Source: Bugula neritina (taxonomy: Eukaryota; Bryozoa; Gymnolaemata; Cheilostomatida; Bugulidae). Taken from it: a stretch of DNA of 64,000 nucleotides. The stretch lies in contig OZ037771.1 of assembly GCA_964035545.1 (NCBI GenBank), forward strand, positions 6,381,690 to 6,445,689, given 5' to 3'. This document shows, one piece after another, positions 457-56,578 of the stretch. The notes under the pieces are model-generated. The model was not told where the DNA came from and did not search any database. It saw nothing but the letters and a program-made list of their open reading frames with translations. The position numbers were made by a program, and so were the translations under genes. The first letter of the stretch is position 1. Each line of letters opens with the position of its first letter.

Positions 457-3400
457 CTCACATGAACACACACACACACACACACATGCTCACATGAACA
501 CACCCAGTCATTTAAAAGGTGTGGTGATTTGAGCCATTGAGCTGTAAAATAGCTTGATTATCAACATAGTATGCAGTTTAATATAAGAAAAATGTCTACG
601 TGGTGTATAAAATTGACTTTTTTCAAAACCACTTAACTCGCTCCTCTGATGAGGATTTATGCAATAGCATTTATTTGAATTTATCAGGCGACATGGACTA
701 CCTTGTTTGAAGATGTTGACACTTCTACAACAAAGTCTGTGCTGTTTATGAAAAAGTTGCTAGCTCTTGGCGTTTCTAATATTTTGTTTTGGCGTGGGCT
801 TTTACCAGAAGCAGCTTTTGGGGAGCGCATGATTGGAGGTACGCTGATTGGTTACAAATGATAACCTTTTGTGAACTTTGAACTTCTATACAAGAGCCAC
901 TTAAATAAGTTAAGAGTATATTCAGCATTTACTGTAAATATCTCATTTAATTTATTAAGCTTATGTATGTCTAAATATAAGTATAGTCTCAGAATTTCAA
1001 AACCTTATAGGGGAATGGACTATAGTATGCTGTACATTACTATTTTGTTGTGAAGGAGCAGGTAATGTATGTAGTTATAACTTTTATTATGAATTATGCT
1101 AGAGAATGCTTTAAAAATTCTGCGAAGTGAGAAGGATTGCCCAGCAGCTCTCAAGATTATCAGCTGGATAAAAGCCAGTTTTGAATTTATTGCCAAGCGT
1201 TGGTTGAGAAATTTCTATTTGGTGATTCGGGATGAGCAGAACGAAAACACCATAGAAACTTACACTTTCAAGTTTCAATACACTGACAAGGAGGTGGAGA
1301 CTGAAGTCTACAGGTAGTTTTTATGATTTTACAGTACTCTAGTACTATTTATTTACTAACTGTTACTCGTCTATACTCTTCACTATAATATATTACGAAA
1401 TGTAGAAAAGTATTAGGGCTCCCTCCATATCTCACTAAGCTGTGGGTCCTGGAACTTCAATTCATGACAAAGTAGAATACCAGATTTAACTCACGGATCT
1501 GTTAAATTCAGCTATTTTGTCCCTATACACACATATTTAACACAAAACAGGAGTCCAGGCCCTTCTGGTGACCTATGGAATTTTGTGATAAATGGATCCG
1601 TGAGATATGGAGTGAAAACATACATAATCACTTATAATTCCTTATAATGTTCTTTTCTAACATCACCAATGACTCTCGTTAGAAACTCTGTAGTTCAATG
1701 CTTACAGTACGTTGTAATAAAAGTTTCAGTTGAGCTGCTAAATCCAAATTTTTACTTCTATTTCAATCTAAAGAAATAACAAGAAGATCTTGGGGGTAGA
1801 AGGAAAGACAATGGCCATGTTATCAAATATATCAGCTGTGGTGAAACCCCTGGGTGCCGCACCCCTGCCTTGCATGATATCCGTGGACATGGACTTCAAC
1901 CGTTCAACACCAGAACGTAAGTGAATTAGCGTTTCATGATGTACCCTTATACCATATTACAATTTTATAATATACTCTCATATCATGTATATATTACAAT
2001 ATTGTAAACATATACACTTGTGTTTATATAATATTATAATAATATACATTTATATCTCTATTACGGCATTATAATATTAGTATATACTTAGAACATGCCT
2101 ATATTGCAGTAGTATAATAATATACACCGCCATATTATACCAATATATACCAGCATGTCTATATTACCATGATGCGAACTCTATTGCGTGTACATGCAAG
2201 TGTATAGTAGAATAAAGGTAATATACTGATTGTTTAGTGAAAGCATCAGGTGCAACTATCGCTTAAGTTTAATTTAGTGAGCTCATAGCTAGGAAAGTAT
2301 TCATGATGTATATACGCAGCCAAGCTGATCTAGCACAGAGTGTATACATAACAATTATACTCTGTGAATATGTATTGTAGTCGACATCCCCCTAGATGTC
2401 ACTGTTCCAGGGTTCATACCTATACCAGAACTTTCTCACAAGTTTGATGGTAAAAGACTTGCTGTAAACCTTGGAGACATCAATACGGCATATCATGAGT
2501 GTGTAATATATCATGTAGTATATGTGTGTACAGTAATATATTAGTAATATATCATGTCATATATGTGTACAGTAATATATTAGTAATATATCATGTCATA
2601 TGTGTACAGTAATATATTAGTAATATATCATGTCATATGTGTACAGTAATATATTAGTAATAAATCATGTAGTATATATGTGTACAGTAATATATTAGTA
2701 ATATGTCATGTCATATATGTGTTGAGTAATATATTAGTAATATGTTATGTCATATATGTGTTGAGTAACATATTAGTAATATGTCATGTGATATGTGTAC
2801 AGTAATATATTAGTAATATGTCATGTGATATGTGTACAGTAATATATTAGTAATAAATCATGTAGTATATATGTGTACAGTAATATATTAGTAATATGTC
2901 ATGTCATATATGTGTTGAGTAATATATTAGTAATATGTTATGTCATATATGTGTACAGTAATATATTAGTAATATGTCATGTGATATGTGTACAGTAATA
3001 TATTAGTAATATGTCATGTGATATGTGTACAGTAATATATTAGTAATATGTCATGTGATATGTGTGCAGTAATATATTAGTAATATGTCATGTGATATGT
3101 GTGCAGTAATATATCAGTAATCTAACCAGCAGCTTATATATAGCAACCACATGGATTAATTATAGTATGTAGCATGTGTTTACAGTGCAAGTCAGTATGT
3201 AATACTACTAGGTGAATACAAGCGTTCTTATGAATATATAGAACTATTTTGTTTTCATTTTGCTTATAGATTACTAGTTTGAAATATGCATAAACCTAGA
3301 TGCACATTCTTATATTCAAGTATTTGAGCATTTCCCTTTCGGTTGTTAGTATTTCTGTTGCTGCAGGTGTAAACTGCAGGTTAGAACTCTGTCATCTAGA

Positions 3401-37313: not shown

Positions 37314-37854
37314 TTTGCTTTTTCTTGAAATACTGTTATTAGTTTCATTACATGTACATGCACATAGATTTTATACAAAAGCTGGTTTTGTAAAGATATT
37401 ATTTTTATACCATCAATTACAAGACGAAATATTTAAAAATGTTGCAGACTTCAATTATGAAAGCTGGCAATACAATCATCGCTTATTCACTGAGTTTTAT
37501 TCTGTGTTTAAATCAAAAAGTTATGTTAAATTGTGTCAAGACGAAAATATTCACAGTGCAAAAATTTTTGCTGGCTTCTCTAATAATAGGTAATCACTCA
37601 GTATATAAAAAATTAGCCATATCTATTGGTAATCTTTCCGAGGAAGTAATAGGTAACGGTGCAATTATGGATGTTGGTCTGCTTAATTATATTGCATGCT
37701 CAGGTTTTTTGTAGTTTTATCACAATTAACTCATTCCGTCATATAATATTCTGTATTAATGTAACACATCACACTCACCTGCCTATCATTGAAATTCGAA
37801 TAGATGCTGTATTTGTGTATATTGCACAAATAGTGAGACATTTAATGTAGGATG
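37314..37854 (+). other. Unassigned sequence downstream of PDSS2
   Basis: Two overlapping plus-strand frames (to 37593 and 37439-37714) encode unrecognised peptides. A single frameshift near 37560-37590 would join them. No domain or splice support is visible. It may be 3' flank or a decayed fragment. Confidence 0.3.
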
Positions 37855-38529
37855 ACCCCTCATTCACACTTACCGTATCGTACGCCGTAACAGCAAAAAT
37901 AAAATGGCCACGCTGTTGCATTTTGTCGACGGGTGTTCACACATTGCCGTCAAAGTACAATGCATGACGTTGAGCTGTGACCAATCATAATAAAGCCAAC
38001 TCTTGTCTGCGGTGATTTGAACGCCTTTGAATATTATTTACAAATTATTCGCAACATTCTTATCAAAAGATGTTATATAAATGCTATTTACTAAATAAAA
38101 GCGATTACATGGAAAGAATCTTTTTTTAAATATATTCGTTTTTAAAATAATTGTGCAAACTAATTTAAATAATGAATATTTAAGCCGTCCAAATCATTTT
38201 TAAGTTTTTGGTTTGCTTGATTTTGTGATTAGGGAAAGCTAGATTTTTAAGCTGAGTTTAATTCAAACAAGCCGGATAAAATTTTTTTAATCTCTTGAAT
38301 TGATTAAATTAAATCAAAAATAAGCGATTAAAATAAACTAGCGAAAACGTTCTTTAAGTTTTAGTACCAGATCAAATCTACCCAATAGGAGCCCGCCGTG
38401 ATTTTTTGAATCAAGCACTGCTTGATCAACGCCGCAACGTATACCGGAGTACGATTTAGCCCGGATGTTGACAAAAATCGCTAAAATTTGCTGTTACGGC
38501 GTACGGTACGGTAAGTGTGAATAGGGGGT
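37855..38529. mobile_element. TIR element, tandem copy 1
   Basis: The left end contains TTCACACTTACCGTATCGTA and CGCCGTAACAG. The right end contains CTGTTACGGCGTACGGTACG and GTAAGTGTGAATAGGGGG. The TIRs are about 40 bp. The interior is AT-rich with no transposase. Adjacent copy 2 matches it along its whole length in the same orientation. Superfamily unknown; a PIF/Harbinger-like nonautonomous element is possible. Confidence 0.75.
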
Positions 38530-38544
38530 GAGGGGTAAAAAGGC

Positions 38545-39236
38545 TACCCCCCTGTTCACACATTACCGCATCGTACGCCGTAACAGAACAAACAAAATGG
38601 CGCCACTGTTACATTTTGTCAACGGGCGTTCACACATTGCCGTAGTAAGTACAACGCATGACGATGAGCTATGTCTAATCATAATTAAGCCAACTCTTGT
38701 CTGCGGTGACTTGTACGCTTTTGGATAGTATTTACAAATTATTCGCAACATTCTCATTAAAAGATGTTATATAAATGCTATTGACTAGATAAAAGCAATC
38801 ACATAAAAATAATCTCTCTTTTAAATATAATCGTTTTTAAAATAATTGCGCCAACTAAATCAAATAATGAATATTTAAGCCGTCCAAATCAATTTTAAGT
38901 TTTTGGTTTTCGTGCTTTTGTGATTAGGGAAAGCTAGATTTCTAAGCTGATTTTAATTCAAACAAGCCTGATGAAAGATTTTTTAATCTTTTAAAATTTT
39001 TGAATTAGTTAAATTAAATCAAAAATAAGCGATTACAATAAACTAGCGGAAACGTTCTTTAAATTTTAGTACCAGATCAACTCTACCCAATGGGAGCCCG
39101 CCGTAATTTTTTGAATCAAGCACTGCTTGATCAACGCCGCAGCGTATACCGGAGTACTATTCAACCCGGATGTTATCAAAGATGGCGCAAATTTGCTGTT
39201 GCGGCGTACGGTGCGGCAATGTGTGAACAGGGGGTA
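38545..39236. mobile_element. TIR element, tandem copy 2
   Basis: The left end contains CCCCCTGTTCACACATTACC, and the right end contains GCGGCGTACGGTGCGGC then AATGTGTGAACAGGGGG. It is similar to copy 1 throughout (shared CAAGCACTGCTTGATCAACG, ATTAGGGAAAGCTAGATTT). Short ORFs at 38528-38728 and 39090-39293 look non-coding. It lies about 540 bp upstream of the LRCH start. Confidence 0.78.
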
Positions 39237-39776
39237 CACCTTACATCCACCCTGAATGCACTAAGATCAGAAAGATTTTTGAAATCCGGCTAGAGCCTAT
39301 TTTATAGTGTAGACTCCGGATAGCATGCACTTCATTGACCTGCAGGAGTAGAGAAAGGAGGAACAGGAAGATTTGATAATGTAGGGGTGAAAAACTCAAC
39401 TTTTGCTGGTGTTTAATCTGTAAAGTTCATGAGCTTTTTGTAAAGTTTTCAGTTACTATAAAATCTCTCTTTGGAAGATGTCAGCCTTTTTAGAAAGAGG
39501 AGTTGTGTGATGTAAATAATGTTGTCTGCAAATATACCATTAAAGTCATTTTTGTTAAGTGGAGTTATTTTCTTTTGCCATGAGGACAAATTTAGCTAAC
39601 TGGTAGCCCACTCTACCAATATTGATTTCTGTAGTACTGTAGTATGTAATCGTTGCGCTTGATGAGAAATAATATTGTGTTAGAGATGCCAATTTGAATA
39701 AAGAAAAGACAACTCTGTTTGCTTGCGATAATTTAAATAGACCGGAAATTAAGTTTTGCAACTCAAAATAGAAAAA

Positions 39777-42700
39777 ATGGCTGCCGGGCTCAGAAACAAT
39801 ATTCACTCATCAAATACTCGCACTGTTGATAAGAATTTAGAAGATTCACAAAGTACAGGCAGTTTGGATTTGAGTAGCAGAAAACTTAGTGATTTTCCTA
39901 AGACTGCAGAGAGTTATGATCTTGCAGACACCGTCGAAGCTAGTAAGTATTAGTATAAGCTGAGGTGAAGTTTAAGTTTTAGTATTTGAATTTTGAATTC
40001 AATTGGTATTACGATTTACTCACTCTCAGTTTCAGTTTGAGTTTGGGCTTGACTTTGAGAGTGATTTTTATGAAATTCAATTATGATGATTAAGTGGGAT
40101 CTCTTTCAATCTTTTGGTAAATTAGATACACTCGCTGGTGAGCATGGTGGTAATCACTAATACTAATACTCAGAATTAGAATAGTAATACAATAACTATA
40201 AGTATAAGATTAATAAATATAATAATTCATAATTCATTAATTGTAATACTAATAATAATACTAATACTTAAATTTGAAGTTAATATTAATACTATTATTT
40301 TATTTAATCTTATGATTTTAATTTAAGTTGTAAATTATTATGAATAATATAAATTATTATAAAATTGAAATTAAATAATAAAATATGATAATTACAATAA
40401 AAATAATCATAATAATAATATTATTAGTATTAATATAACTGTAGTTATAGTATTAAATAAATAATCTTATAATTATTTAATCATAATCATTAGTCTTGTA
40501 AATAGATTAGGCGTAACTATAAGGATTATTATAATTATATTTATTGATCTTTTATGAATTATTATAGTTATGATTATCACATTCACCGACAGTGATTATC
40601 AATATGATTTTGATAATTAGCATTGGTAATAAATAAAACCGACAACTGTATTTACTTTTCTTTTCTCTGTAATAGGAAATCATAGTAATTAGACACAGTT
40701 GCGTTTTTATAATAATAATTTCCAGTGTGGGGACCATGTAATACTGCTGTTAGTAATACTGTATTAGTATAAATATAAGTATAACTGTTAGTTATTAGTA
40801 TAAATATAACAAATGGGAATAATAACTCCAGTTGTCTTGAAGATAATTAAAAGTTAAAAGATAAGGACTTGCATCAGTAAAGCAATCATAGTAATTGTAG
40901 TGCCAGTACTATATCTAATAGTAATGCCTATGTTGATTCTAGTGCTCATTCTCATACTTATGATGGGTCTGCTAGTTACACTACTCGTACTGCCACTGTT
41001 GGTGTGCTAATTAGTATGTATATGTTGAGTGTAGCGGATAGTAGGCTTTTGCATGTTGAACAGTTTAGCAATTTGCTTATAACTTGTCAGAATATGCATC
41101 ACTGTTTTTGAAGTTCATACATGTTAAGAACGATTCAAAAATTAGTTATAAACTATATATGTTGATCAAATTTCAACAATTCAAAATTGAGTAGCAGATT
41201 GATAGTTGTCATAGTTTAAGATAGATAGTTATACAGGGTGAAGGTTCATTCTCTATTGTGTGCAGTCTGATTCAGGAAGTGTTCAAGCCCCACTGCTGAC
41301 ATACTAGTAACATTGAAAATTCAGTTTATTCAAATTATTCCAATATTTTAAATGTCAAAATCAATAATATAAATAATATATTACGTAGCTATTCTGTCCA
41401 ATAGTAGTATAGGTCTTCAAACAATTTCACTGCTTGTGTTTCGCAGCGAAAATATCTTGTCATAAGACATTTATGTCTCACATTTAACTCAACTTTTTAA
41501 TTATATTGCTTTTCGAGTTTGATCCTTATAGTCATTGTACATGTAATCACAAAGCACAGGTTAAAGTAATTATAATGCTATTAAGACAACTTTAACATAA
41601 TTTGAAAATTTATTTACTTGGTTAACTATGTCATATAGTAATTTCTAATAACTTGTTTTTGTGTTAATGTTATATTGATTAGGAATGCTTTCATTTGAAA
41701 GATAATTGGTGTGTGTATAGGTTTTTCAATTAGAGTCAGTAGCTGAAATCATAGCATCACTAGTGGGTTTGTTGAGTGATTTCGTCTCCTGACACATAGC
41801 GATTCATCTCCGCTATTAAACACAGTTGGGCTATCTTGAAAGATGATAAATTTTTCTTATACATGCTCTATCTGCATGTTTGCTATCGGCATGTTGGCAA
41901 GGATAAGTTATACCGACTAGGTGAATAAACTATGGTGAAAGGGACTATTTATTTTGATATAAATTTTAAATAGGCTGAAGCTTTATAGATAAATTCTTTT
42001 GATAAACTTATGCTGTCTTTTGAATTATAAAAATGTAGGTTATGGTCACAGTATAAAAAACATCAATGAATCAATGTTGAATAGGCTGTTGACAATCAAT
42101 TTTGTAGTTGAGTATTCACAGTGGTATACAATGTAGTTTGTTCCTGCTCAAGATACTGGACAGCAAGCAAAGTTTTATATATGTCAGACTATTTTAATGA
42201 AATACAACTCGTAACTTTCTTTTAAACTATACAATTTACTTTGTGGTCACAGTGTAATAACATCAATGGATAAATTCTGGGTAATAGTTCACAGATGACT
42301 GACTTTTTAATATTTTGGTAACTAATTTTGCAGATTTGTCCAAAAACAGATTCTCCGAGATTCCAGAAGAAGTCTGCCAGTTTGTGTTGCTGGAGAGATT
42401 GAATTGTTACCACAATGCAATTAGAGCTCTCCCAGATGCTATCACTAGGTTGCAGTACTTGGGCTTTCTCAATCTCAGGTTTGTAAAGCATTCAGTTGAG
42501 GGGCTGACTTTAACTTCTGTGAACTACTCAACAGTCAATCATCTCCTTTATTTTGAGTTGGATGTACTTGTACATGCAGCTTACATTTCTCGCTCATTTA
42601 AAGTTATCTATCTTTATGGGGGATGAGACTCTGTTAGTGTTTTTAATACAACTACTTTTGAACTGACATTTCACTGCCAACAGTTAAATTCATATAATTG

Positions 42701-45700
42701 TAGGATTGCGTTTTCATGTTTATTTATCTTCATGATATCACATGTGTGTTTTAGTTTCTTTGATTTCAGTTATTTGGCATGGACCAAGTCTTAAAGACTT
42801 GTGTGGAATTTGTAGTTCTTGTGGCGTGTTAAGTGTTATGATGCCTAGCAATATGCTAATACAATAATATAATAATATGATAGTATACTAATATAATGAT
42901 ATTTAATGATATACTAATATAATAATTTTTTCTGTAGCCGTAACCAGCTGAGTGTTCTCCCACCATTCCTCTCTCAATTAAAATGTTTAGAAGTCCTCAT
43001 AGTTTCTCATAACAGACTGGTCTCCATACCTGAGGAAATATCTCAGCTCGGGCTCCTGATGGAACTGGTAATTCACATAGTAGTCACCTAACTTTTGCAT
43101 TGAGTGTGGAATTGGCTAAACACTACATCTAATCGGATTGTTTTTCTGGGATTTGCCAAATACCAACACATGAACCATATAGTATATTTATGATGACTTT
43201 TGAACTACAGCAAAACCTGCTTGTTCATTTTGACAAATATGTATATTGGCTCACTGAAAATTATACATCTAAATCAACAGATGTAAGCCTTTTTACTGCT
43301 GTGCAACTCTGGTAAAGTTAAGGGTATCAATGGCAAGGGCATAGGATTCCTTATTTATTATGTCAAACGACTTGCTTTAGTTCTCTATTCTTAGTCTATC
43401 AGGAACAGTTTTTGCCTTACTCTGGTCAGCCAAAGCCCATAACAGCCCTGGGTCATGTGTTGTTTTAGGATGTTAGTAATAATGAGATATCTATGGTACC
43501 ATCCCAGATTGGCGACCTCGGCGAATTAAAGATTCTCAATCTAAGGAAGAATTTGCTGCTGGAGCTGCCTCCAGGTACTTGTCTCCTTTCCCTACCTGCT
43601 GCTTTTCAGTGTCCCGTGTTACGCTGTCGGCTCCAACACGGGACAGCTGATACAATTTCTTAATCATTGTGAATTTATGCCATGCAATGGCTGTTTGAGT
43701 TTTATATAAGAGTGACTAAGTAGTCAAGACTGCCCTCATAAAGGGAAACGTGCAGCAATGATTTGCTGGTAGGCCTTTAGATATTCTATACACTGTCCTC
43801 CTTCTCTAAACGCAGTGTGTGTACAGCTACCATGTTTGGATTTGTCCCTCACAGTGTCATAGTCCCGCACCTTTTCAATGGGGAAACTATTGATATCCCT
43901 TAAACATATTTAAGAGAATTAAAGTTAAGAGTGTTGCTGATCTCACTGTGTCTACGTATGCTCATGCTGTGATATCAACAGCAGCAATATAGTGTCTTAC
44001 CTCCTCATTAGACAGCTAGTACGCTCAGCTAACTGCTCCTTAGATGCATTCAATCAATTCTTTATCTATCATCACAGTTTGTATCGAATGCTAATGACTA
44101 TGGCGTAGTAATTGATGCGATAAAACGATTTTTCGTACACTGCGATCATATGAATCTAACTGCTGACTGATACCACTGACACCTTGCTGGTGGGAATACT
44201 CACTAATAACTGTGAAGTTTGGAGTTGCGAAAACTTGATTTATTGATATCTATTTTACAGAGATCAGCCGACTGAAATTAAAGTCGTTGGATTTTAGTTG
44301 TAATAAGATTCAGACTGTTCCGTTAGAGTACAGGTTTATGGAGACTCTGGAGGAACTGGTGCTGGAGAACAACCCCCTTGTGAGTCCCCCTGCCAGCGTA
44401 AGTACTACACTCCTGATAACTAATATATGTATTACTACCCCCAGTGTGTACTATCTACTAATATATATATTACTACGCCCAGTGTGCCCTAATAACTAAT
44501 ATATGTATTACTACCCCCAGTGTATCTTAACTAATATACTCGTATGATGTATCACTAGGCTAGTGTGTCCTAATAACTAATATATGTATTACTACGCCCA
44601 GTGTGTCCAAACAACTAGTAGAGTATGTATTGCTGTTCTAAGTACAACTACTACTAGCCAATATATATGACCTGTTGAATATGCTGTAGACATGCACCAA
44701 GGGAAGAGTACACATACTCAAGTATCTACAAATCCTAGCGGTCAAGGAAGACAAACGGCGGGGAGTTCTTTCTGAGACGGGATTCAATAGAAACACACTG
44801 AGAAGATCATACCAGAAAGAGTGAGTAGGACACTGCACTCTTGCCTACCAACATATCATCCTATAACTATGCATTGTGTTGCAGCGTACAATAACCCATA
44901 ATAACGTGTTATTGTAATAAGAGGCTTTGCTGTGTGCATTCCACACCATGTGTGTTCTGTTAGGAATTCTGCTCCCTGGTTATGAATGAATCTGTCATGT
45001 TTAACTAATCTGGTTATCAACATGGCAGTCAAACTTTACACCTACCTTGCACTCCACAGTTTAGTGTGATTTACTCAGTTTACAAAATCTTATATTTGCA
45101 TTCTACCCAGTGTTTTGTTTTGGTCCATCGCCTCTTTATTGTAGGATATTGGTTTTTTTTGTACTGTAGAGATGCAGAGGCTGTCAGACTGAGGCGCAAA
45201 GCAATACACAGTACAGACTCGGGCTACATCACCGACACCCTACACAGGTGGACCACAGGTGGCACTGAGGTATAGCCATGTCATCTGTTACTGGATCATG
45301 TTATGCAGACACTGTATACTGTGTTAGCTCCTTGTTGGCCATCCAGGCATACTTGAGTGGTTTTATGACCTAATCAGTGGATGTAAGTGCAGTAATGGAG
45401 AAATTGAGAAAAACCTGTGTTCTAGATTAGGAATGTAGCATAAGAAGTTATGTTCTTGTGAAAATTTCAACCTGCGTCCCAAACCAAAATCGGATAATAA
45501 CATTAAATAACTTAGACTATCTCAATTTCTCCACTACTGCTCCTAAGTGAGTGATACTAGTAGGTCATATATTTGATGAGTAAATACAAGTAGCAGTACA
45601 TCTACTCTCTGATTAACAGAACGGGTTTGACGGAGCCATTAAGGCTGCCGAGTCGCTGAAAGAGCAGCGTGCTGAGCGACATCTGGAGTTGCAGAAGAGG

Positions 45701-48700
45701 ATATGTAACGCGGAGCTGGTGAGTCCCAGTCGACCTCCGGCAGCGCTGTCGCCCTGCTCGCCGGATAGGGGAGACGGAGGCAGCATTTCTCCTCTCAAGT
45801 TTACACCCAGTGGCACAGACAATGGAGAGGATATGTTTGCTAGGGTGAGTGTCCTTCATGGTGTGTGTTGACCTTGACCGTATGTGTGTTGACCTTGACC
45901 TTACCTGTGTTGACCTTGACCTTACGTGTGTTGACCTTGACCGTATGTGTGTTGACCTTGCCATTACATGTGTTGACCTTCACTGTTATTGGTTTCCACG
46001 CCACACGTTGCTCACTCAACTATTTATATAATCTAAGCGGCATGTTATCATAATATGAAGAAAATAACATTTTATCAGGGGGTTTGAACCCTTACAGCAC
46101 CCGCTTCGCTGTCTAGAGTTTATCCACTTGACTAGCCTTAACCAAACACCGAATAGTGAGCTCACCCCATGCTAGCTTTTCATCTTTATAATGATTAACA
46201 ACTACAATGTGTTGTCTAACTGTGGAATCTTATGAGATGCAGTGTGATATGAGCTCTTACTTTCAACACTACTCTTATTCATTAGTTATCAACTTTAGAC
46301 TTCATCTATCATATTAAACGGTATATACTAGAGTCTGTAAACGAGAAAATTTTTAGCTCTAAGTAGAGTGTATAAAGTATATGACAGGGTGGAGTTCAAA
46401 TCAGGTTTACTCAAATACGTGTTGAGTTGAGTACTTGAAATTCTTAGACCTAGACTAATTGTTTGGCATCATGCATGTCTTAAATATATCAAAAAATAAC
46501 TTTGTAGCCATGTTTTGTAAAAATGTCCCTGTGAAGTTATGTCAGATCCAGATCAGATCATGTCTGCCGTCTTTGAAATTATAATTTCATTTATTTTGTC
46601 TAAAATGTCTGTTTCTATTGTTTTTCTCCTTTACTTTGTCATATAGACTGACTTGTCTGCACAGGTAAATTTATTTCATTTGTTTCGTGTTTACGTTAAC
46701 CTTCACTAGACTGTATACATGGTAGTGGTCTTTCAATCTTCTCTACAGCTTACTTTAATTTCAACCCTTACAGCTTCATGTTCTTATTCTATCCATCTGA
46801 TAGCTCTCACATGTAGCTAATCTGCTCCATCAGGTGAAGTGACCCTTTCTTTAGATGACATTAGTTTGTGTTTCTACTTTAAACTTACCTCTGCTGATTG
46901 TAAGCAACTATATATATTTTTACCTGCTAACATCATGTATAGATCAAGTCGCTATATACGCTGTTTCGTTATATGCCTGTTGTGGTGAAGACAATTACGG
47001 TTGCCATGGTTACATGTTGGGATTCGTTTAATTAGGAGTTACAAAAGCAGAAGTATGATTATGAGCAGAGAAAGAAGAAGGCAGAGCAAGCCAAGTTTGA
47101 AGTCGGGGTTAGGAAACCTTCAAGAGTTCAAACGGCGTCTCCGGTAGTTCCTGGATCTGCCCCTGTTAGTCAACTACCCCAGCCTCCAGTTAGGTCGGCT
47201 TCAGTCAATGTTGGAAAGTGAGTCAAAGGTTTAGTTACTCGGGCTGGGTGATAGTTAGAGTCTTGTTTGCTTAGCATGACCTGATGGACTAGCATGTCTA
47301 GTAGATGTATTTGTGCACCTATCAACCCTCATTTTCCAGTTGACTGTTGAATTTACTTTGCTGTAGAGGTTTTGTTGTGTCATTAAACTTGTGAAGTGTG
47401 ATAGAGGCATAGAAATGATACGTTATATTATCATAATTGTTTTACTACAAAGGGACTGATACATGAGTGTATTTTTTGTCCAATGTATAAGTTCCATTAG
47501 CAGAAAAATGCTACCCCTGATATATACAGCAACAGCCATATGAACAGGTACTGACACATATAGACAAGTATTGACACCTATAGTCAAGTACTGACACATA
47601 TAGACTAGTATTGACACATATAGACAAGTACTGACACATATGGACAACTACTGACACATATGGAAAAGTACTAACACATATAGACTAGTATTGACACATA
47701 TAGCCAAGTACTGACACATATAGACAAGTGCTGACACATATAGACTAGTATTGACACATATAGACTAGTATTGACACATATACAGATATATGTTGGCATA
47801 TACAGACCTGCTGGTAATTAATGTTGACAAGCTATTATAATTTCTAATAGAAAGAGCATGCTCTATGAGGAGCGTGGGACTGCTCGGCCCACTAGATTGT
47901 CATTATCAAGGCAACATAGCCTCACTCTCCCTAACCATTTCCAGTTGGAGGGTACTAGGTAACAAGTGAAGCTTACAGCCAAATGTTGTGTGTAGCTTTC
48001 TTGAAACATCTTAAATAAATAACATCCACTACAGCTTCAGGCTTTTGACATGCGCACTGTTGCTGTGCTCAACTCTATGATATTGTGACAGTGGTGTACC
48101 CCTCTCCATTTTATTGGGGGTGCACCTAAATACAGCTTTGCAGCCATATTTCAGTCTTACACATTAAGAATTTAGCTGGATTAATTGTGTTAATTCTTTT
48201 CTTTGTTGTATGTTGTTTGTTTGTTTATATATTCACATTAGATGTAATATTTAGCTCAGAAGTGCAGTAAAAAGCCTTAAAATCACACAATACTGTGTTA
48301 CCAGATTTAAACTGAGACTTTGCAGTCCCTAGTTTTGCCCTCCCCTCCTCACCCCTTAGGGTGTAGCAATTGACTGTGGGGATCTATCCGTAGAATTCAG
48401 TGTCTGTTCCCAAAAGCAAGCTAGGGTGACTAACATGTATATATAGAAGGCTAAACGTATAGCACTAGTAAATGTTACATATGTATGTAAAAGGCACACT
48501 TGCTAAGCACTGTGTTGCATATTTGCTAATGTGTGCAATATTTCATCTATATTTTAATGCCTGCTGCATATAAAGAAATGCTTACTGCACCTACTCCTTG
48601 GTGTGTTGCATCATATTCTACTCTGCTATGTGTTGCATCATTATCTTCTCTTATCAGTTGCCTGGCTATATCTTGTAGCAGCAGCAGTATATTGCATGGC

Positions 48701-51700
48701 TATAATAATGGTAGTGTGCTGAAAAACCCCTCCCTCTTCAGTCACCACTACTTCCATCCAAAACAGTAAGTGCCGTGAGACATTTGCATGCCCTACAAGT
48801 ATGTGCCTTATATCTGCTAGGCTCAGCAAAGTTTACAGTTACAGTTACAGATTTTGCAGATTAAACTCTCTGTTTTATATATCAATCTCATTTTTATTCT
48901 TGTGCTTCATTTTTCGAGAAATATTTCAGTATTTGCACTTTACTCCTAAAGCATATTTATTTTATTATTTCAAATAATATGTTTTTATCTGTCATGCCTT
49001 GTTAAGTATGCCTGTCTCACATTTCACGCTGTATTTAAACTATTTATACTTTTTTTGTATTTCATGCGAATTATTTTGTATTTTAGAGAAGGAGTTGAAT
49101 CAGAATTAAAACACACGTAAGTTGAGCAACAAAATACTTCCTATTATAAGAGTTGTCTACCCATTTGTAATACCTTTATACCAGTAATAATAGTTCATTA
49201 ATTATTATAGCAGTAAGAATACATATATGAATATCTAATGATGGACAAATTGCTTTATAGTAAACTACAACACCTGGTAATTTAAGATATATATAGATAT
49301 AGAAGGTCATTTAATTTTTTACTACCATCACTTGTTGTTCAGGGTCTGTGCTCTAGACTATAGCATAGAGCCATAGACTACAGAGTATATTGCAGACTAT
49401 GCAATGCACTATGCTATAGACTATAGAGTATAGACTATGCTATATAGTATAGACCGTGCTATACACTATGTTATGCTTACGCTATAGAATATAGACTATA
49501 TTATATGCTATACTTATTCTTGTAGGTTTGAGCAGAACCTGGACAGGTCTACAGATAGTCACAGGAGTTCTCCCAGCAGCCTTACGTCACAAGTTAGTAA
49601 TTCACAAACTACTAGACATGCTTCAATATGCTTAACATTTCTACCTATCTTTTTAAGAGTCAACCTACATTGTTCACAATTAGTTAGGAAACAACTCTGG
49701 AACTTTGAGTAATTTTTAGTACTAAGTTTACACTTGCTTGTATAACTAAGCTTTAAAATTGACAATTTTTATAATAGGAGTTTTTCTGTAATCACTGGGA
49801 ATTGTCTTCTTTTTCAAATTCATTAAGATAGATATAATTCCGAATCTATGGCTATAGCTAAATTGTTTGGTGCACTAGTAGTAGTGCTAAATAGTTTATA
49901 GTTATCTATATTACACAGTATAAAATGTTTACAAACCCGATTGTTGATTTTTTTAGTTTCATTAGCTCTGTGCTTCATAATAATGGGTGTTTTTCACACA
50001 CTGTTGACACTACAGTTCCATGCAACTTGTTACCCTGTACCTCTGTAACAAAAGTTTTTGAGCAGAACTTGGAGTTATCTCTCTCTGTGTAGTGGTTGTC
50101 TTCTCTCTTTCCTAAAATAGTAGCCTATTCTTACAGGAGAGTGATCACAGGGTGTCAAGTTTGTCTTCTCGTGTATCTTCCGGGACTCCTGAACCTCATA
50201 TTACGAGTAAGCCTCCGTTAGCGCACTCGACACAGGACAACTCCACTCACAAACTACCCACTCGAAACTCACACAAGGTAAGTTATCTTTACAGTCATGT
50301 GTAGCTTCAATACTGGCTGTGGTGTATTGTTGGCGAATGTGAAAAGTGTTATGAAATTTTGCCGTTGATTTTTGTTTAAGATTGTAAAGCCACGAACTAG
50401 GGTGTCATTGAGAGACAAACTTGCGGTGAGTTTAATGTATTGTGGAGGATATGCTGTGTGTAGAAATATGACCTTGACCTTGCTGCAGTCTACTAGTCCT
50501 TGTGTGTGTAATTCTAGTAGTCCAGGCAAACCATTGTTGTGACTTGCCGTGTTGAACAGTTTAATCCTTGTGTTTGTTAGTGTGTCTGTTGTTTGCTTAT
50601 AGTCTGCTGCTGCCGCTCCCAAGGACAGTGTTGATGCTGCCGCCTCCCGCCACACCTCAACCAAAGTCACGTCAGCTGTCGGTAAGACTGGCCTTAGACT
50701 TCCTAAGTCTCTCAAGTCTCAGGGTCGAAGTAAAACGGCACCGCTGCCGCACAGCACCTCATCTGCTGCTGACGCTGCCACCACTGTTGTCCTCTCAATC
50801 TCCACCCGCTCACAGACTAGTCAACTCTCTTCCTCCACCACTAAGCTGCCAGTCAAGGCAGCTCTTAATGTCGGAATGCGCTCATCTCTTGGTTCTCCAA
50901 CTCATGGTAATTCTGCTGCTGCCGCTGCCTCCAAGTCTAAGTTTGGTATGTGACACGGCGGTGCTGGCCAATAGCCTTGCATGCCCTGACCAGCTAGTGG
51001 CACAGTTCTGCTGACTCCCGGCAGCGAAAGGCACGGCGTTGCATGTCTCCAGATCTGTGGCCTTCGACTCGCGTGGCTCAGCTTCGTAGTTCAGATGTCT
51101 TTTATAGCCTCCACCCTCAAGTATTTCACTCGTGTTTCGGGTTATGTGGCTTTTTAATATTTCCTTTTTACCTTAAAGATTGTGGTGGTAGTTTGAAGTT
51201 GTGTTCAGTTGTGTTGAATAATGTTAGTGGAACGTTTGATTCACTTGGTTATCAACTTGAAATGTATAGGTTTCAGTCAGCTGTATTACGTGTGTTGGTT
51301 GTAGTTTGGTGTTTACTAGCCGATCTACTCACAGATGGGTTGTTTGTTAACTGGTGAATGGTTATTCAGCTCTTCCTGCATCTCTACATACTTCACAAGA
51401 CAGGTCTTGCATGCTGAAGGCCCAATCCTATTTCACCTTCTCTCTAAACCCTCACGACTCATATTGAAAACCTCCACTTTCCATATCAAAGTAGCACACT
51501 TATTACTTTTTGTAATGATATAATTATCACTGAAGTCTATGTATTTTATACATACCTTTCTCAACCATAGCTTCTTTTCTGCTTCTAAATTACATTCAAA
51601 TCTGGCTGTATGTAGGCATAGATGGCTGACCATATGCTTAAAAGTACCCCTGATTATGCTACTCAAAATTTTACCTTACACACCATTCTGTAATGAAAAC

Positions 51701-54700
51701 ACTGTTGATGTGCAGCTTTTTATAACCTTGCGTATTCCGAATTACATATAATTTGCTTGTGTTTTCTTGTATATGTATTGTGTTTTGGTGATAGTATAAC
51801 TTCATGATTTTAAGTGTATTTACTAATTGCTTTAATTCACTTAATGTGTGTTTTGGCATGTAGAATGTAGGGTATAGGAGAGTGAATGTAAAGTGTAGAA
51901 TTTAGGAATACGCAAGGAATAATATATTACAATATATAAATAGAAGGTAGAATATATCTTTTAAAAATAGAAGGTAGAATATGCAATATAAAAAGTAGAG
52001 TGTATAATGTATAAATAGCAGGTAGAATATATAATATAGAAATAGAAAGTAGAATATATTATAATGTAGAAATCGAAGGTTGAATATATTATAATATAGA
52101 AATAGAAAGTAGAATATATAATGTAGAAATCGAAGGTTGAATATAGAACATAGTGTATCTTGTAGGTTTTCAATCGACTAGCTCATTAGGTCGAGGAGTA
52201 AAGTTACCCTCTCGCTCTGTAAATGGAAATGAACACTCCACAGCTGACTCCTCCCCACAGAGTGGTAAATCCAGCACCAAGCCAGTTGGTGAAGCCTCAC
52301 ATATATCTGATATTAAAGAAGTTAGTTGTCTCCTCACTCTGCTCTCATGTTCCACATTTAATAGATTATGTATAGTTGGCATTAGACCTGAACTCCAACT
52401 CGAGATCTTTGAATTCTGAATATGTTAATAGTAGTAGAATTTTACCAGAACTGTTAACTCGTGCCTCAGCGTAATGTTGACTTCTAACGTTAGACAAGTA
52501 ATGTAAGATGACAAATGGGAGCAGCCATCTGTAGGGGTTAGAGTGCTAGCTTAGTAAATCAGTAGTCAGTGGTTTGATCCCCAGTAAAGGCCATTGGTGA
52601 TGTTAGGAAAAGCATCCAGTCATAATTGCTCCTGTGTCACTTATGAATAAGTCCTTAGCCCACTTTTAAAAGAACCTTTTCCAGCAGGAGTTCCCACAGG
52701 GATAGTGACTATAAACTTGCATGAGTTTTGTAAGGTGACATCTGCAGTAGACACAGTACAAGTTGCCATGTAATACGGGGTGTCTACTGTTTCACCACTC
52801 AGTGCAGTAGACACAGTACAAGTTGCCATGTAATACGGGGTGTCTACTGTTTCACCACTCAGTGCAGTAGACACAGTACAAGTTGCCATGTAATACGGGG
52901 TGTCATCACTCAGTTGACTGAGCTGCTACGCGCTGTGTTATGTAGATAATAGAATCTCGACTGAAAGTAACTCTGCCTAAGGATGTGATGGGAGAGCTGA
53001 AGGACGGGGTGATACTTTGTCATCTTGCTAACCACATCAAACCTAGGACAGTGTCACAGATACATGTGAAGAGCAGTGCAGTGGTGAGAGATAGTCTCTA
53101 TATAATGTGTATATAGAGTGCCTATATAGAGTGTATATAGTGTCTATATAATGTGTATATTAAGTATATAGTCTGTATATAGTATGTGTATAATGTGTAT
53201 ATAGTGTCTATATAATGTGTATATAGAGTGTCTATATAGAGTGTATATAGTGTCTATATAGAGTGTATAGTATACGTATGTAGTATGTATATAGTCTCTA
53301 TATACTATATAGTCTCTATATACTATATAGTCTCTATATACTATATAGTCTCTATATACTATATAGTCTCTATATACTATATAGTATCATGTATATAGTA
53401 TGTATATAGTATCGTGTATATAGTCTCAGTAGACTACAACATTGCTCCCTCCATTAACTGGCAAACCTTTTGTCCTTCAGTTGAAGAGGTCAACATCTAC
53501 TCAGTGACTGTAGTATATTTTCATTGCAATTTGTCTTCGGATTTAGCCCAAGTTGACGATGGCAAAGTGTAAAAGAAATGTAGAGAATTTCTTGGAAGCC
53601 TGCAGGCGCCTGGGTGTGCCACAGGTGAGTGACACGGCTGTACTAGTCTCCCTCCCTCACATGCTGCCTGCTGAAACTGTTGGAACTTCAGCTAGAATTA
53701 TTTACTTTAAAATGTTGTTAATGCAAGCAGTTCTACTCGAGAGTGTCTTGCCTCTGTAAAGGTTTATTCACACTTGGGTGATTCCGTGATGAAGATGTTA
53801 GTTTCTTGTATGTCGGTATCAGCTGTTAGAAAATGAAACCCTAAACAACAATAGTTATTGTCACAAATATTTTACTGCGTTTGTGTAGTTAATGAGAGCA
53901 GATGAATTCACTTGTTAACTAACTTTCATTGTAAGTTTAAACTTGTAAGAGTTGTTTGATAATTACACATATTTTCTAGACTAGTCAAATCAACCAGATT
54001 CATGTTCTTTTATTTTTCAAATGTCTAAAAAGATGTTAACCTCGCGACTGGTTAACTTAAGACTGATTAACAAAAATCAATTTGTTTTTACTCTATCTCC
54101 CACGTGTGGACTTACCTTACTTCTTTCTATCGTGCTTGTTATATATTTGACCTTCACCTAGTCTCTGCCTTTTGTTTCCTTGAGTCGTGTGTTGTGTTGT
54201 TGCTGAAAATGTCATCATTCTCTGCTGTGACGCAGCTTTCTAGCTGGGTTCAAAGGTCAAGGTCAGCTGACTATAGACTTCATTGACTACACCGTTGTGT
54301 CTCTCCATTCCTACCAACAGCTACTCTGTGTGTGCTCTGCATCTCTGCTCTATGGAGCATCTATCAGTTCGTGTTGTCAGAATAATGCATGTGTAGTTCT
54401 TTCTTTGCCTCTTCCTTCACACACTTTTTAACAACCTTTTCCCATTACATAGCTGTTTGATTCCAGAAACTGCTGCATATACATTACATCTACCATTTTC
54501 TGTTCTGGCCCAGATTTCGCTTGAATTTCAAAGCTTTCCATGTCTACTAATAGTAGATGACTTAGTGGGATGGTACCAGGACAGCCGTTGATTTGCACAA
54601 AAGTCTGAGTGTTTGTAGCATAAACTGTGGTGTTTCTGGCTGTGCTCGTTATTATCTTGTTCTTAAGTTAGTAGTTTCAAAACTTGATTGTGTTTTCTTT

Positions 54701-56194
54701 TTTTTTTGGTTTCCTGTGCCAAAATTTATGTAACAATCTATGGCTCAAGAGAGATAATTGGGCTGGAGTTGTCTACACTTTTTCCTCACTTGTAGCCCTC
54801 AAAGACCTTTGATTTTCAGTCTTACCGTTTGTCACACATTTTCTGTAGGCTGATATATGTACTGCTGATGACATTTTGGACGAAATTCGACCGAGAGTTG
54901 TCGCTACAACTGTAAAAGGGCTCTGTGTAGTGCCGTCTAGTTTGGATGTATTTCTGTCGTACTTCTGTATCTATTTGTTCTTGGCCATATGTGTTTATCT
55001 GTATTTGTTTCAAACCCCTTAATGCAAACCCTTTCCGTTTTCTTAAGATTCTTGAAGGCAATAACACTTGTGCGGCTTTATGTGTTCCAGCAGTATTGCA
55101 TTTTGCATGTAATGCCATTTCATTTCGAAGTTACGTTCTCTCTTTTAGATATAAGATAAATCTTAGTAAAGTCTGCTTGGCTTATCGTCATAGTAACTAT
55201 TTTGTGAGTGTAAATCCCCTACTTCATACTCTCGTAACATCCCCTGATTTTCCTTGTGCCTCCTCTGAAGATGAGACTCACTGTTACTCTAGTTTTTATG
55301 ATATCCAATTCCTAAATGCAATTTTTTGTTTTGTACAATCAGTCATTTCTCAAAAAACAGTCTTCTAGTACTTTCTCACTCTCTCCACACTCTGTAGCCA
55401 TTATGTGTCAACAGCAACTGTACTTTATTACTGTATAAGATGTAGTTACAGCTAGATCTAGGAGTTATCTTCTGCTTGTTAATGTTACATTTACATGAAC
55501 TAGAAAATAGCATATACAGGTTAACAAAAGTGTCATTTACTTGACTAATGTATTGTACTTTACTAGAAGAGGCAACTCAACTAAGTGGTTAGGTTTCCAG
55601 ACAAATAATTGGCCCTCACAGTAATATTGCTGCTGCACAGATTTCTGTTCATCTGCTTATATATCGGCTATGATTTGGCTTTGTACAGGAACAGCTGTGT
55701 AGTCAGGCAGACATTATAGATGAAAAGAGGCCAGCCCCTCTGCTGTGTACACTGCAGGCGCTAGTAGACCTAAAAACAGCCTTAGCTAAAAGTGCAACTT
55801 GTGCTCAAACAGCCCCCAACTCTGTCCATAGTAGACCTAACTCACGGTCTAAATCCAGTCAACCTGGTCCTTCGTCTAGGTCGCTGTCAAACAGAACCAC
55901 CGGCAGCAGTGGTAAACAGCGTTCTCATCCTCCTCTCCATTCTGTAGTCTGATCTTCAATTTTGTCACATCTTCATATTACTCATAAGGAAATATATATG
56001 TTATAATGAATTGTTTTTATTAACATGAGATCTGCCTGTAATTCTCATTTATTTAAGACCTTCTCATTTCTCATCTTTGTTATTTATTTATTTTTGCAGC
56101 AGCTTTTTCTATATTTTCTTGGCTGTTAATTAAACCGCAGTACCTTCACTACATACTATTACTTGTTGCTATGGTTTATTACTTTGAACTGTAA
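39777..56194 (+). CDS. LRCH: Leucine-rich repeat and calponin-homology protein (LRCH)
   Basis: Core exons: 39777-39942, 42334-42478, 42938-43067, 43469-43574, 44261-44397, 44690-44820, 45170-45269, 45620-45844, 47036-47217, 47851-47958, 49087-49116, 49526-49592, 50137-50277, 50381-50425, 50603-50945, 52166-52320, 52946-53083, 53547-53624. All junctions are GT-AG with matching phases, giving 809 shared residues before a C-terminal choice (54849-55022, or 55689 onward). Residues about 25-230 carry leucine-rich repeats typical of LRCH (LDLSSRKLSDFP, NLSKNRFSEIPEEVC, DVSNNEISMVP, LVLENNPLVSPPA), then the TCTKGRVHILKYLQI segment. A long Ser/Pro/Ala-rich linker follows. The CH domain starts at about 738 (IIESRLKVTLPKDV, DGVILCHLANHIKPR, MAKCKRNVENFLEACRRLGV). 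Known family role: scaffolds that bind DOCK-type Rac/Cdc42 exchange factors and regulate the cytoskeleton. ATG context (AAAAAATGGC) is good. Confidence 0.93.
39960..40980. repeat. Cryptically simple region in LRCH intron 1
   Basis: About 1 kb of TAATA, ATAATTAT and TATAAGTA words directly after exon 1, related in style to the regions at 20.9, 34.1 and 62.4 kb. No coding signal. Confidence 0.5.
44400..44640. repeat. Tandem repeat, units of about 40-45 bp
   Basis: Units of AACTAATATATGTATTACTA followed by CGCCCAGTGTGTCC or CCCCCAGTGTG are repeated about five times. The array starts at the donor of LRCH exon 44261-44397. Confidence 0.85.
45845..45980. repeat. About 20-bp tandem repeat
   Basis: Units of TGTGTTGACCTTGACCTTAC are repeated about six times, starting within 20 bases of the donor of LRCH exon 45620-45844. 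GT-rich with embedded TGACCT half-sites. Confidence 0.9.
46070..46145 (-). repeat. tRNA-derived SINE head or tRNA pseudogene
   Basis: On the minus strand GGTTAAGGCTAGTCAAGTGG resembles a tRNA 5' end with A box, and GGGTTCAAACCCCC is a good B box at suitable spacing. No proper cloverleaf or anticodon arm was confirmed. Lies in an LRCH intron. Confidence 0.5.
46647..46664 (+). CDS. LRCH: Candidate 18-nt LRCH microexon
   Basis: A T-rich tract and ATATAG precede ACTGACTTGTCTGCACAG, which is followed by a GTAAAT donor. It adds six residues (TDLSAQ) in phase 0 between exons 45620-45844 and 47036-47217. Support is sequence only: both splice sites plus frame. Confidence 0.4.
47520..47795. repeat. 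20-bp minisatellite
   Basis: About 13 units of TATAGACAAGTACTGACACA with alternation of AAGTACT and TAGTATT. Lies in an LRCH intron, 55 bases before exon 47851. Confidence 0.95.
48679..48765 (+). CDS. LRCH: Candidate 87-nt LRCH cassette exon
   Basis: TCTTGTAG acceptor and GTAAGT donor surround an open 87-nt segment, phase 2 to 2, that adds 29 residues in frame (SSSILHGYNNGSVLKNPSLF, then SHHYFHP). It joins exons 47851-47958 and 49087-49116 whether included or skipped. Confidence 0.6.
49350..49515. repeat. CTATAG-rich simple repeat
   Basis: Overlapping words CTATAGACTATGC, GTATAGACTAT and TGCTATAT extend to the acceptor of LRCH exon 49526-49592. The many short palindromes come from CTATAG. 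Confidence 0.8.
51870..52150. repeat. About 26-bp AT-rich tandem repeat
   Basis: Units of ATAGAAATAGAAAGTAGAAT and AATCGAAGGTTGAATAT run up to 16 bases from the acceptor of LRCH exon 52166-52320. Confidence 0.85.
52519..52650 (+). repeat. tRNA-derived SINE
   Basis: GGGGTTAGAGTGCTAGC fits a degenerate A-box region and GGTTTGATCC (52571-52580) fits a B box. Next comes GTTAGGAAAAGCATCCAGTC, a GTTAGGAAGGGCATCC-like block of a kind I recall in some SINE bodies. Inserted in an LRCH intron. Confidence 0.55.
52741..52915. repeat. Nearly perfect 60-bp triplication with internal inverted repeat
   Basis: Three copies of a 60-bp unit, nearly identical, the third shortened. Each contains CAGTAGACAC and, 25 bases on, its complement GTGTCTACTG. 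It ends 30 bases before LRCH exon 52946-53083. The low divergence implies recent expansion. Confidence 0.95.
53090..53430. repeat. TATA-rich minisatellite
   Basis: Units of GTGTATATAGAGTGTCTATA shift to exact TAGTCTCTATATACTATA repeats and then to TATCGTGTATATAG. It fills the start of the LRCH intron between the two CH-domain exons. Confidence 0.9.
54849..55022 (+). CDS. LRCH: LRCH alternative terminal exon A (last CH helix + transmembrane tail)
   Basis: TTCTGTAG acceptor, phase 0 from exon 53547-53624, 57 residues to TAA. It starts ADICTADDILDEIRP, homologous to the start of exon B, and then has a strongly hydrophobic segment (VFLSYFCIYLFLAICVYLYL) and ends QTP. This layout matches vertebrate LRCH forms in which a transmembrane segment closely follows the CH domain. 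No clear AATAAA was found just downstream. Confidence 0.75.
   Translation, partial: ADICTADDILDEIRPRVVATTVKGLCVVPSSLDVFLSYFCIYLFLAICVYLYLFQTP
55689..55952 (+). CDS. LRCH: LRCH alternative terminal exon B (last CH helix + soluble tail)
   Basis: TTGTACAG acceptor, phase 0 from exon 53547-53624. It starts EQLCSQADIIDEKRP and continues ALVDLKTALAK into a Ser/Arg-rich tail. Read straight through, it stops at TGA 55950-55952 (87 residues), giving a cytosolic protein. An internal donor (GTAAAC at 55912) can instead splice to 56100. Confidence 0.75.
   Translation, partial: EQLCSQADIIDEKRPAPLLCTLQALVDLKTALAKSATCAQTAPNSVHSRPNSRSKSSQPGPSSRSLSNRTTGSSGKQRSHPPLHSVV
56100..56194 (+). CDS. LRCH: LRCH terminal exon C (second transmembrane tail)
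   Basis: TTTTTGCAG acceptor, phase 1 after the internal donor at 55911/55912. It encodes AAFSIFSWLLIKPQ, then YLHYILLLVAMVYYFEL and TAA at 56192-56194. The hydrophobic stretch suits a C-terminal tail anchor. A poly(A) signal follows at 56573. Confidence 0.65.
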
Positions 56195-56572: not shown

Positions 56573-56578
56573 AATAAA
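56573..56578 (+). promoter_or_regulatory. LRCH poly(A) signal
   Basis: AATAAA in an AT-rich context, 379 bases after the exon C stop. It would serve both exon B and exon C transcripts. Confidence 0.55.

What the first reader, a model, noticed from the sequence alone, without database searches (positions are those of the whole stretch)
54849..56194. LRCH has two paralogous, mutually exclusive 3' exons that swap the last CH helix and the membrane anchor
After the CH exon at 53547-53624 the frame can continue in phase 0 into exon A (54849) or exon B (55689). Their first 28 residues align without gaps and share 9 identities (C4, D8, I9, D11, E12, R14, P15, T21, L25), as expected after tandem exon duplication. 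Exon A ends in a hydrophobic tail; exon B ends in a soluble tail or splices to a different hydrophobic exon. From family knowledge, vertebrates hold comparable C-terminal variety across LRCH paralogues and isoforms. Here one locus could encode it. That A and B are used exclusively is inference.
Basis: partly seen in the sequence, partly recalled or inferred. Interest (0 to 1): 0.75.

Follow-up and report, generated by a model that had tools for sequence, protein, structure and literature searches.

The report
Ancient alternative tails of LRCH gene
A bryozoan gene for a cell-cortex scaffold protein carries two alternative final exons, one ending in a membrane anchor and one in a soluble tail; the same choice is seen in molluscs, arthropods and vertebrates, so it is an old animal feature and not a quirk of this genome.

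Summary
The window carries an LRCH gene (19 shared exons, 39777-53624) of a bryozoan, Bugula neritina or a near relative. The last shared exon continues in phase 0 into exon A (54849-55022: last CH helix, then a hydrophobic segment near the C-terminus) or exon B (55689-55952: last CH helix, then a soluble tail). Exon A is real: a profile of nine non-bryozoan tails matches it at E=1.4e-15, and the Lingula tail alone finds it first in 216 Mb. A and B are ancient paralogues: 12 A-type and 16 B-type heads separate on one branch. Isoform pairs with the same junction exist in a clam, a lobster and a gar. New here: 19 of 29 distinct soluble tails end in a class I PDZ-ligand pattern, against 0 of 43 anchored ones, so the choice looks like membrane anchor versus PDZ ligand. 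No RNA was available, so use of both exons in this species is inferred, and the deposited Bugula and Watersipora proteins that I saw carry only B. Isoforms with and without a membrane segment are already known in mammals.

The parts
39777..53624 (+). LRCH gene, 19 exons shared by both isoforms (start codon to the last shared CH exon); the 18-base exon 46647-46664 is uncertain
   Evidence: GT-AG splice sites and consistent phases throughout; LRR and CH domains by Pfam
52946..53083 (+). first CH-domain exon
53547..53624 (+). last shared CH exon, with the 9/9 consensus donor that faces both acceptors
54849..55022 (+). exon A: last CH helix plus hydrophobic segment and stop (membrane-anchored isoform)
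   Evidence: A-tail profile E=1.4e-15; first hit of the Lingula tail in the whole genome, E=3.8e-7; hydropathy 2.2
55689..55952 (+). exon B: last CH helix plus soluble tail ending in HSVV and stop (soluble isoform)
   Evidence: same tail in Bugula P0001; only hit of the Watersipora tail in the genome, E=1.6e-7
   Evidence: no donor of 6/9 or better inside exon B; no profile match
56573..56578 (+). AATAAA, likely poly(A) signal of isoform B and perhaps of both
   Evidence: position only, no transcript data

Best explanation
This is an LRCH gene of a bryozoan with a pair of alternative last exons inherited from the common ancestor of protostomes and deuterostomes. The strong donor of the last shared CH exon joins either to exon A or, skipping A, to exon B. 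Both supply the last helix of the CH domain. A then adds a hydrophobic segment close to the C-terminus, and the protein has no hydrophobic stretch at its N-terminus, so isoform A should be a tail-anchored membrane protein with its LRR and CH domains in the cytosol. B instead adds a disordered linker that ends in a class I PDZ-ligand pattern, so isoform B should be a soluble scaffold that PDZ proteins can recruit. The choice of exon thus decides whether the same scaffold body is fixed in a membrane or docked on a PDZ partner. Shown: exon anatomy, homology of both exons, the same junction in other phyla, conservation of the anchor and of the PDZ-like end. Inferred: expression of both in this species, topology, PDZ binding, and how the choice is regulated.
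For: Nine-tail A profile without bryozoans: exon A 53.8 bits, E=1.4e-15, over columns 1-57 of 59, next best exon B 17.6 bits and third 9.6 bits among 1976 reading frames. Lingula tail finds exon A first in the whole genome. A and B profiles align over 31 columns, probability 96. Heads split on one branch, 83/86 support, 86% of bootstrap trees. Isoform pairs that part at the same junction: Panulirus 725 of 725, Mya 1035 of 1036, gar LRCH3 613 of 622 identical before it. A Nucella gene model holds an A-type head and anchor followed by a B-type head, so A lies upstream of B there too. PDZ-like ends: 19 of 29 soluble tails against 0 of 43 anchored tails; shuffled ends give 2.4 on average and never 19 in 20,000 trials. 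The last six residues PLHSVV are the same in Bugula and Watersipora although the linker has diverged. Predicted structures give a last CH helix from both tails and a separate hydrophobic helix from A. The CH-plus-A query finds three matches in the genome, all in this gene.
Against: No transcript evidence. The deposited Bugula protein (P0001) and both listed Watersipora entries carry only B, though clustering at 90% identity may hide A forms. Exon B on its own scores only a little better on the B profile (19.3 bits) than on the A profile (17.6 bits); its B identity rests on the tree and on Watersipora. Ten of 29 soluble tails lack the class I pattern, among them Octopus, Tachypleus, a snake and several fish. 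Many species in the lists show only one tail type. Between the stop of A and exon B there is no AATAAA or ATTAAA. The LRCH review suggests that the transmembrane form puts LRR and CH outside the cell, opposite to the topology given here.
Confidence: 0.75

Rival explanations
1. Exon A is real by descent but no longer used in this lineage, so bryozoans make only isoform B.
For: The deposited Bugula protein and the two listed Watersipora entries end in B. No canonical poly(A) signal lies between A and B.
Against: Exon A keeps an open frame, a good acceptor (12 of 17 pyrimidines), the conserved head and the hydrophobic segment, which an unused exon would be expected to lose. The Bugula protein is one gene model and skips other exons as well.
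Confidence: 0.12
2. Transcripts that include A are not cleaved before B: they run on through B to the AATAAA at 56573, or splice from A's 3' region into B. The choice is then made at the acceptor only and the 3' end is shared.
For: The first AATAAA or ATTAAA after the stop of A lies beyond B's acceptor. Five donor-like sites of 6/9 lie between A's stop and B, and 5 of 18 donors of the gene model score only 5 or 6.
Against: No donor of 7/9 or better there. Variant signals AGTAAA (55165) and GATAAA (55155) are present. Splicing on from those sites would leave A's stop 86 bases or more before a junction, which usually triggers nonsense-mediated decay (general knowledge). The encoded protein would be the same.
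Confidence: 0.25
3. A and B arose by a recent tandem duplication in bryozoans and only resemble the vertebrate variety.
For: A and B of the window share R14-P15, which other B-type heads lack in the alignment.
Against: The tree puts each exon with its own type from other phyla; exon A matches the Lingula tail including the hydrophobic segment; the two shared residues use different codons in A and B.
Confidence: 0.03

Closest known systems
Mammalian LRCH1, LRCH3 and LRCH4 isoforms with and without a C-terminal transmembrane segment (review PMC7536344, passages seen)
   Same: Same gene family; the same protein body with or without a C-terminal membrane segment. The review names two of three human LRCH1 isoforms, the longest LRCH4 isoforms and, by prediction, the longest human LRCH3 isoform.
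   Different: The passages seen do not describe the exon pair, its age, the exchange of the last CH helix, or a PDZ-like end; the review has no occurrence of splic or exon in its main text.
A/B isoform pairs of LRCH in Panulirus, Mya and gar LRCH3 (deposited gene models)
   Same: Identical or nearly so up to the same junction, then an A-type anchored or a B-type soluble tail.
   Different: Not bryozoan; models were not checked against RNA here. The Panulirus A tail has a longer linker before the anchor.
Hypoxia-induced skipping of LRCH3 exon 15 in human cells (PMC5481333, passages seen)
   Same: Alternative splicing of an LRCH gene.
   Different: It removes 24 residues between LRR and CH domains and does not touch the tail.

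Membership tests
LRCH family | N-terminal leucine-rich repeats | tested here: met
   Pfam LRR_14 60.9 bits, LRR_8 56.8, LRR_4 56.1, over their cut-offs
LRCH family | single C-terminal CH domain | tested here: met
   Pfam CH 48.3 bits in the full isoform A, 50.2 and 52.2 in the CH parts with B and A
LRCH family | closest relatives are LRCH proteins | tested here: met
   best hits Bugula LRCH3 and Watersipora LRCH3-like
LRCH alternative last-exon pair (A/B) | two homologous phase-0 exons after the shared CH exon | tested here: met
LRCH alternative last-exon pair (A/B) | both joined to the shared exon in transcripts of this species | not testable with these tools
   no RNA data; only B is present in the deposited Bugula protein
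Tail-anchored membrane protein (isoform A) | single hydrophobic segment close to the C-terminus | tested here: met
   best window 849-867 of 872, hydropathy 2.2; helix 482-504 in the Lingula model
Tail-anchored membrane protein (isoform A) | no N-terminal signal sequence | tested here: inconclusive
   best window in the first 60 residues is -0.38; no dedicated signal-peptide predictor was run
Tail-anchored membrane protein (isoform A) | inserted in a membrane with the N-terminus in the cytosol | not testable with these tools
   needs an experiment; the review suggests the opposite topology for the mammalian form
Class I PDZ ligand (isoform B) | C-terminus [S/T]-x-hydrophobic | tested here: met
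   ends HSVV; conserved in Watersipora and in 19 of 29 soluble tails
Class I PDZ ligand (isoform B) | binding to a PDZ domain | not testable with these tools
   no binding data; listings for LRCH3 with PDZ (14 papers) and LRCH with PDZ-binding (2 papers) show no report of it

The most novel reading that the evidence does not exclude
LRCH genes carry a splicing switch older than the protostome-deuterostome split, built from one duplicated CH-terminal exon, that toggles a cortical LRR-CH scaffold between a membrane-anchored form and a PDZ-ligand form; vertebrate paralogues later kept one or both tails.
Probability: 0.6. Interest if true: 0.65.

Novelty: new member of a known kind. Interest (0 to 1): 0.5.

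Why it matters
The LRCH review asks how isoforms with and without a transmembrane domain differ in function (PMC7536344, passage seen). This locus shows, in one gene and at one junction, what is exchanged: a membrane anchor against a conserved PDZ-like end, with the CH domain completed either way. That makes the question testable with two short tails, and suggests that the choice has been kept across molluscs, arthropods and vertebrates instead of arising in mammals.

Tried and rejected
Exon A as intronic noise: rejected. Recent duplication: rejected. Third hydrophobic exon at 56100: judged unsupported. A second LRCH gene in the genome: the CH-plus-A query gave 3 matches, all in this gene; Pfam CH gave 48 matches, which I did not sort further.

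Led nowhere: the third protein search, with the Lineus tail and aimed at wider phyla, returned only the query itself among 48 candidates, so nothing is said about sponges or cnidarians. Rfam gave no match in the window. Paper searches: one search gave one paper, and (LRCH3 with PDZ) 14 and (LRCH with PDZ-binding) two; I saw listings only, except the PDZ passages of PMC5891429, which concern other proteins. Searches asked for any two terms and their listed papers were nearly all without LRCH (one of 35 held it), so they are no evidence of absence. Searches were seen as listings only.

Rows dropped or limited: the protein searches list only the best 120 of 3492 hits and of 1531 hits; all 234 distinct proteins so listed were classified, and the fused Nucella model was then left out of the anchored count (44 to 43). 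The A profile used 9 and the B profile 12 hand-picked tails. The tree used 28 hand-picked heads. Three same-species pairs were compared, chosen by species name and contig length; species were not screened systematically. The Fisher value and the shuffles treat related tails as independent.

Full report
What the window is. The window is one 64 kb piece of an assembly of 215.8 Mb in 295 contigs. The gene in question is LRCH. I rebuilt it from start codon to the last shared CH exon as 19 exons (39777-53624); the introns are GT-AG and the phases agree throughout. One 18-base exon (46647-46664) is uncertain and is absent from the Bugula protein. The spliced product has leucine-rich repeats and one CH domain. 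Its CH region is closest to Bugula neritina LRCH3 (P0001), and the full protein to Watersipora. The exons that P0001 shares are nearly identical with a few substitutions (the 447 of 494 identities there include stretches where different exons are forced together). I therefore take the source to be Bugula neritina or a close relative; that is inference.

The observation. After exon 53547-53624 the frame continues in phase 0 into exon A at 54849 or exon B at 55689, each with its own stop. The shared donor matches all nine consensus letters and ties for best among the 18 donors scored. Acceptor A has 12 of 17 pyrimidines and acceptor B 10. Of 30 acceptor-like sites in the scanned intron stretch and at B, nine open 28 codons or more in phase 0, so an open frame alone proves little; homology decides.

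Exon A is real. A profile built from nine A-type tails (Lingula, Haliotis, Lineus, Gigantopelta, Mytilus, Mercenaria, Mya, Ruditapes and P0023, whose species name was cut off), with no bryozoan, scores exon A at 53.8 bits (E=1.4e-15) along columns 1-57 of 59, CH helix and hydrophobic segment together. Exon B is next at 17.6 bits, and the third of 1976 frames of the window has 9.6 bits. The Lingula tail searched alone against the whole genome finds exon A first (E=3.8e-7) and exon B second (E=1.03), with no third hit up to E=10. The Watersipora soluble tail finds only exon B (E=1.6e-7). On profiles alone exon B is hard to assign: 19.3 bits on the B profile and 17.6 on the A profile.

A and B are old paralogues. 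The two tail profiles align over 31 columns from their first residue, probability 96. In a tree of 28 heads the 12 A-type and 16 B-type heads lie on two sides of one branch (83/86 support; 86% of 200 bootstrap trees; no shuffle of 500 as clean), with each Bugula exon on its own side and exon B joined to Watersipora at 97/96. The heads are short and many inner forks are weak, so only this split should be read from the tree. Three same-species pairs that I compared part at this junction: Panulirus (725 of 725 residues identical before the tail), Mya (1035 of 1036) and gar LRCH3 (613 of 622). A Nucella gene model runs through an A-type head and anchor straight into a B-type head, which implies the genomic order A before B in a gastropod, as here. 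So the pair probably existed before protostomes and deuterostomes separated. Nothing can be said about sponges or cnidarians, because the search that might have reached them returned only its query.

What is exchanged. Both tails complete the CH domain. Pfam CH gives 47.0 bits with intron read-through in place of a tail exon, 50.2 with B and 52.2 with A, and a PDB sequence search aligns the exon A head with the end of the calponin CH domain. Predicted structures agree. In Bugula P0001 the B tail (from residue 409) gives helices 414-418 and 423-447, with block pLDDT 93, 93, 91 and then 71. In Lingula P0002 the A tail (from residue 450) gives helices 455-459 and 464-475 and then a separate helix 482-504 that is the hydrophobic segment, block pLDDT 81 to 85. 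Both models are otherwise largely of low confidence (mean pLDDT 55.5 and 60.6). The spliced Bugula A protein itself was not folded.

Anchor against PDZ ligand. I classified the tails of all 234 proteins listed: 73 distinct tails, 44 with a hydrophobic segment after the head and 29 without. One of the 44 is the fused Nucella model, which ends in a B-type tail and was set aside. Of the 29 soluble tails, 19 end in a class I PDZ-ligand pattern ([S/T]-x-hydrophobic; 17 of them with valine last); of the 43 other anchored tails none does. Shuffling the last 12 residues of the soluble tails gives 2.4 on average and never 19 in 20,000 trials. The pattern is present in bryozoan, mollusc, crustacean, hemichordate and vertebrate soluble tails. 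Ten soluble tails lack it: Octopus and four fish tails end in a class II pattern, and Tachypleus, a snake, Owenia (marked partial) and two fish models with long odd tails have neither. In Bugula and Watersipora the linker has diverged but the final PLHSVV is the same, as expected of a functional C-terminus. PDZ binding itself is inference, and these counts treat related tails as separate.

How it probably works. A single strong donor faces two acceptors 840 bases apart. Using A gives an anchor and a stop; skipping A gives B. Between the stop of A and exon B there is no donor of 7/9 or better and no AATAAA or ATTAAA, only the variants AGTAAA and GATAAA. A transcripts may use a variant signal or run on to the AATAAA at 56573. 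Either way the protein should be A, because its stop comes first and no donor-like site of 6/9 lies inside A's frame. Isoform A has no hydrophobic stretch in its first 60 residues, so a tail-anchored protein with cytosolic LRR and CH domains is the simplest topology. The review suggests instead that the transmembrane form exposes LRR and CH outside the cell.

The third exon. The hydrophobic frame at 56100 has a pyrimidine-rich acceptor (13 of 17), but exon B has no donor of 6/9 or better to join to it. The frame scores 5.3 bits on the A profile, and stronger hydrophobic short frames behind acceptor-like sites occur 63 times in the window. Joining to it would also remove the conserved PDZ-like end. 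I do not count it as an exon, though this does not exclude it.

What is known. The LRCH review (PMC7536344, passages seen) says that LRCH1, LRCH3 and LRCH4 isoforms have a putative transmembrane segment or lack it, and asks how the forms differ. The founding fly paper (PMC2923620: word search, abstract and two sections) has no occurrence of isoform, transmembrane or splic in its main text. Searches for LRCH3 with PDZ and LRCH with PDZ-binding list no paper about that link; the PDZ passages of PMC5891429 concern other proteins. So the kind of isoform choice is known. What I did not find in print, in these searches of an open-access library, is its depth in animals, its origin from a duplicated CH-terminal exon, and the PDZ-like end of the soluble form.

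Verdict.

Noticed in passing
G000:C6:10161990-10162144 (L017), matching window 55651-55829: A degenerate DNA copy of exon B with its acceptor lies on another contig (69% identity, several gaps, frame broken), so a fragment of this exon was once copied elsewhere in the genome.
   Followed up: partly
window about 48680-48770: The Bugula protein P0001 contains SSSILHGYNNGSVLKNPSLFSHHYFHPKQ, which is readable here between exons of my model and is absent from it; it omits the exon 47851-47958 that my model includes. Probably alternative exons in the linker.
   Followed up: no
window 52743-52904 and 53288-53385: Perfect tandem arrays, 60 bases x 2.7 and 18 bases x 5.4 (100% matches), sit just before the first CH exon and in the intron between the CH exons.
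   Followed up: no
window about 37850-38530 and 38555-39240: Two similar stretches of about 0.7 kb in a row upstream of the LRCH start, seen by eye; they look like copies of a mobile or repeated element.
   Followed up: no
protein P0027 (Nucella lapillus): The deposited gene model fuses an A-type anchored tail to a B-type tail in one protein, probably an annotation error made by joining two alternative exons.
   Followed up: no
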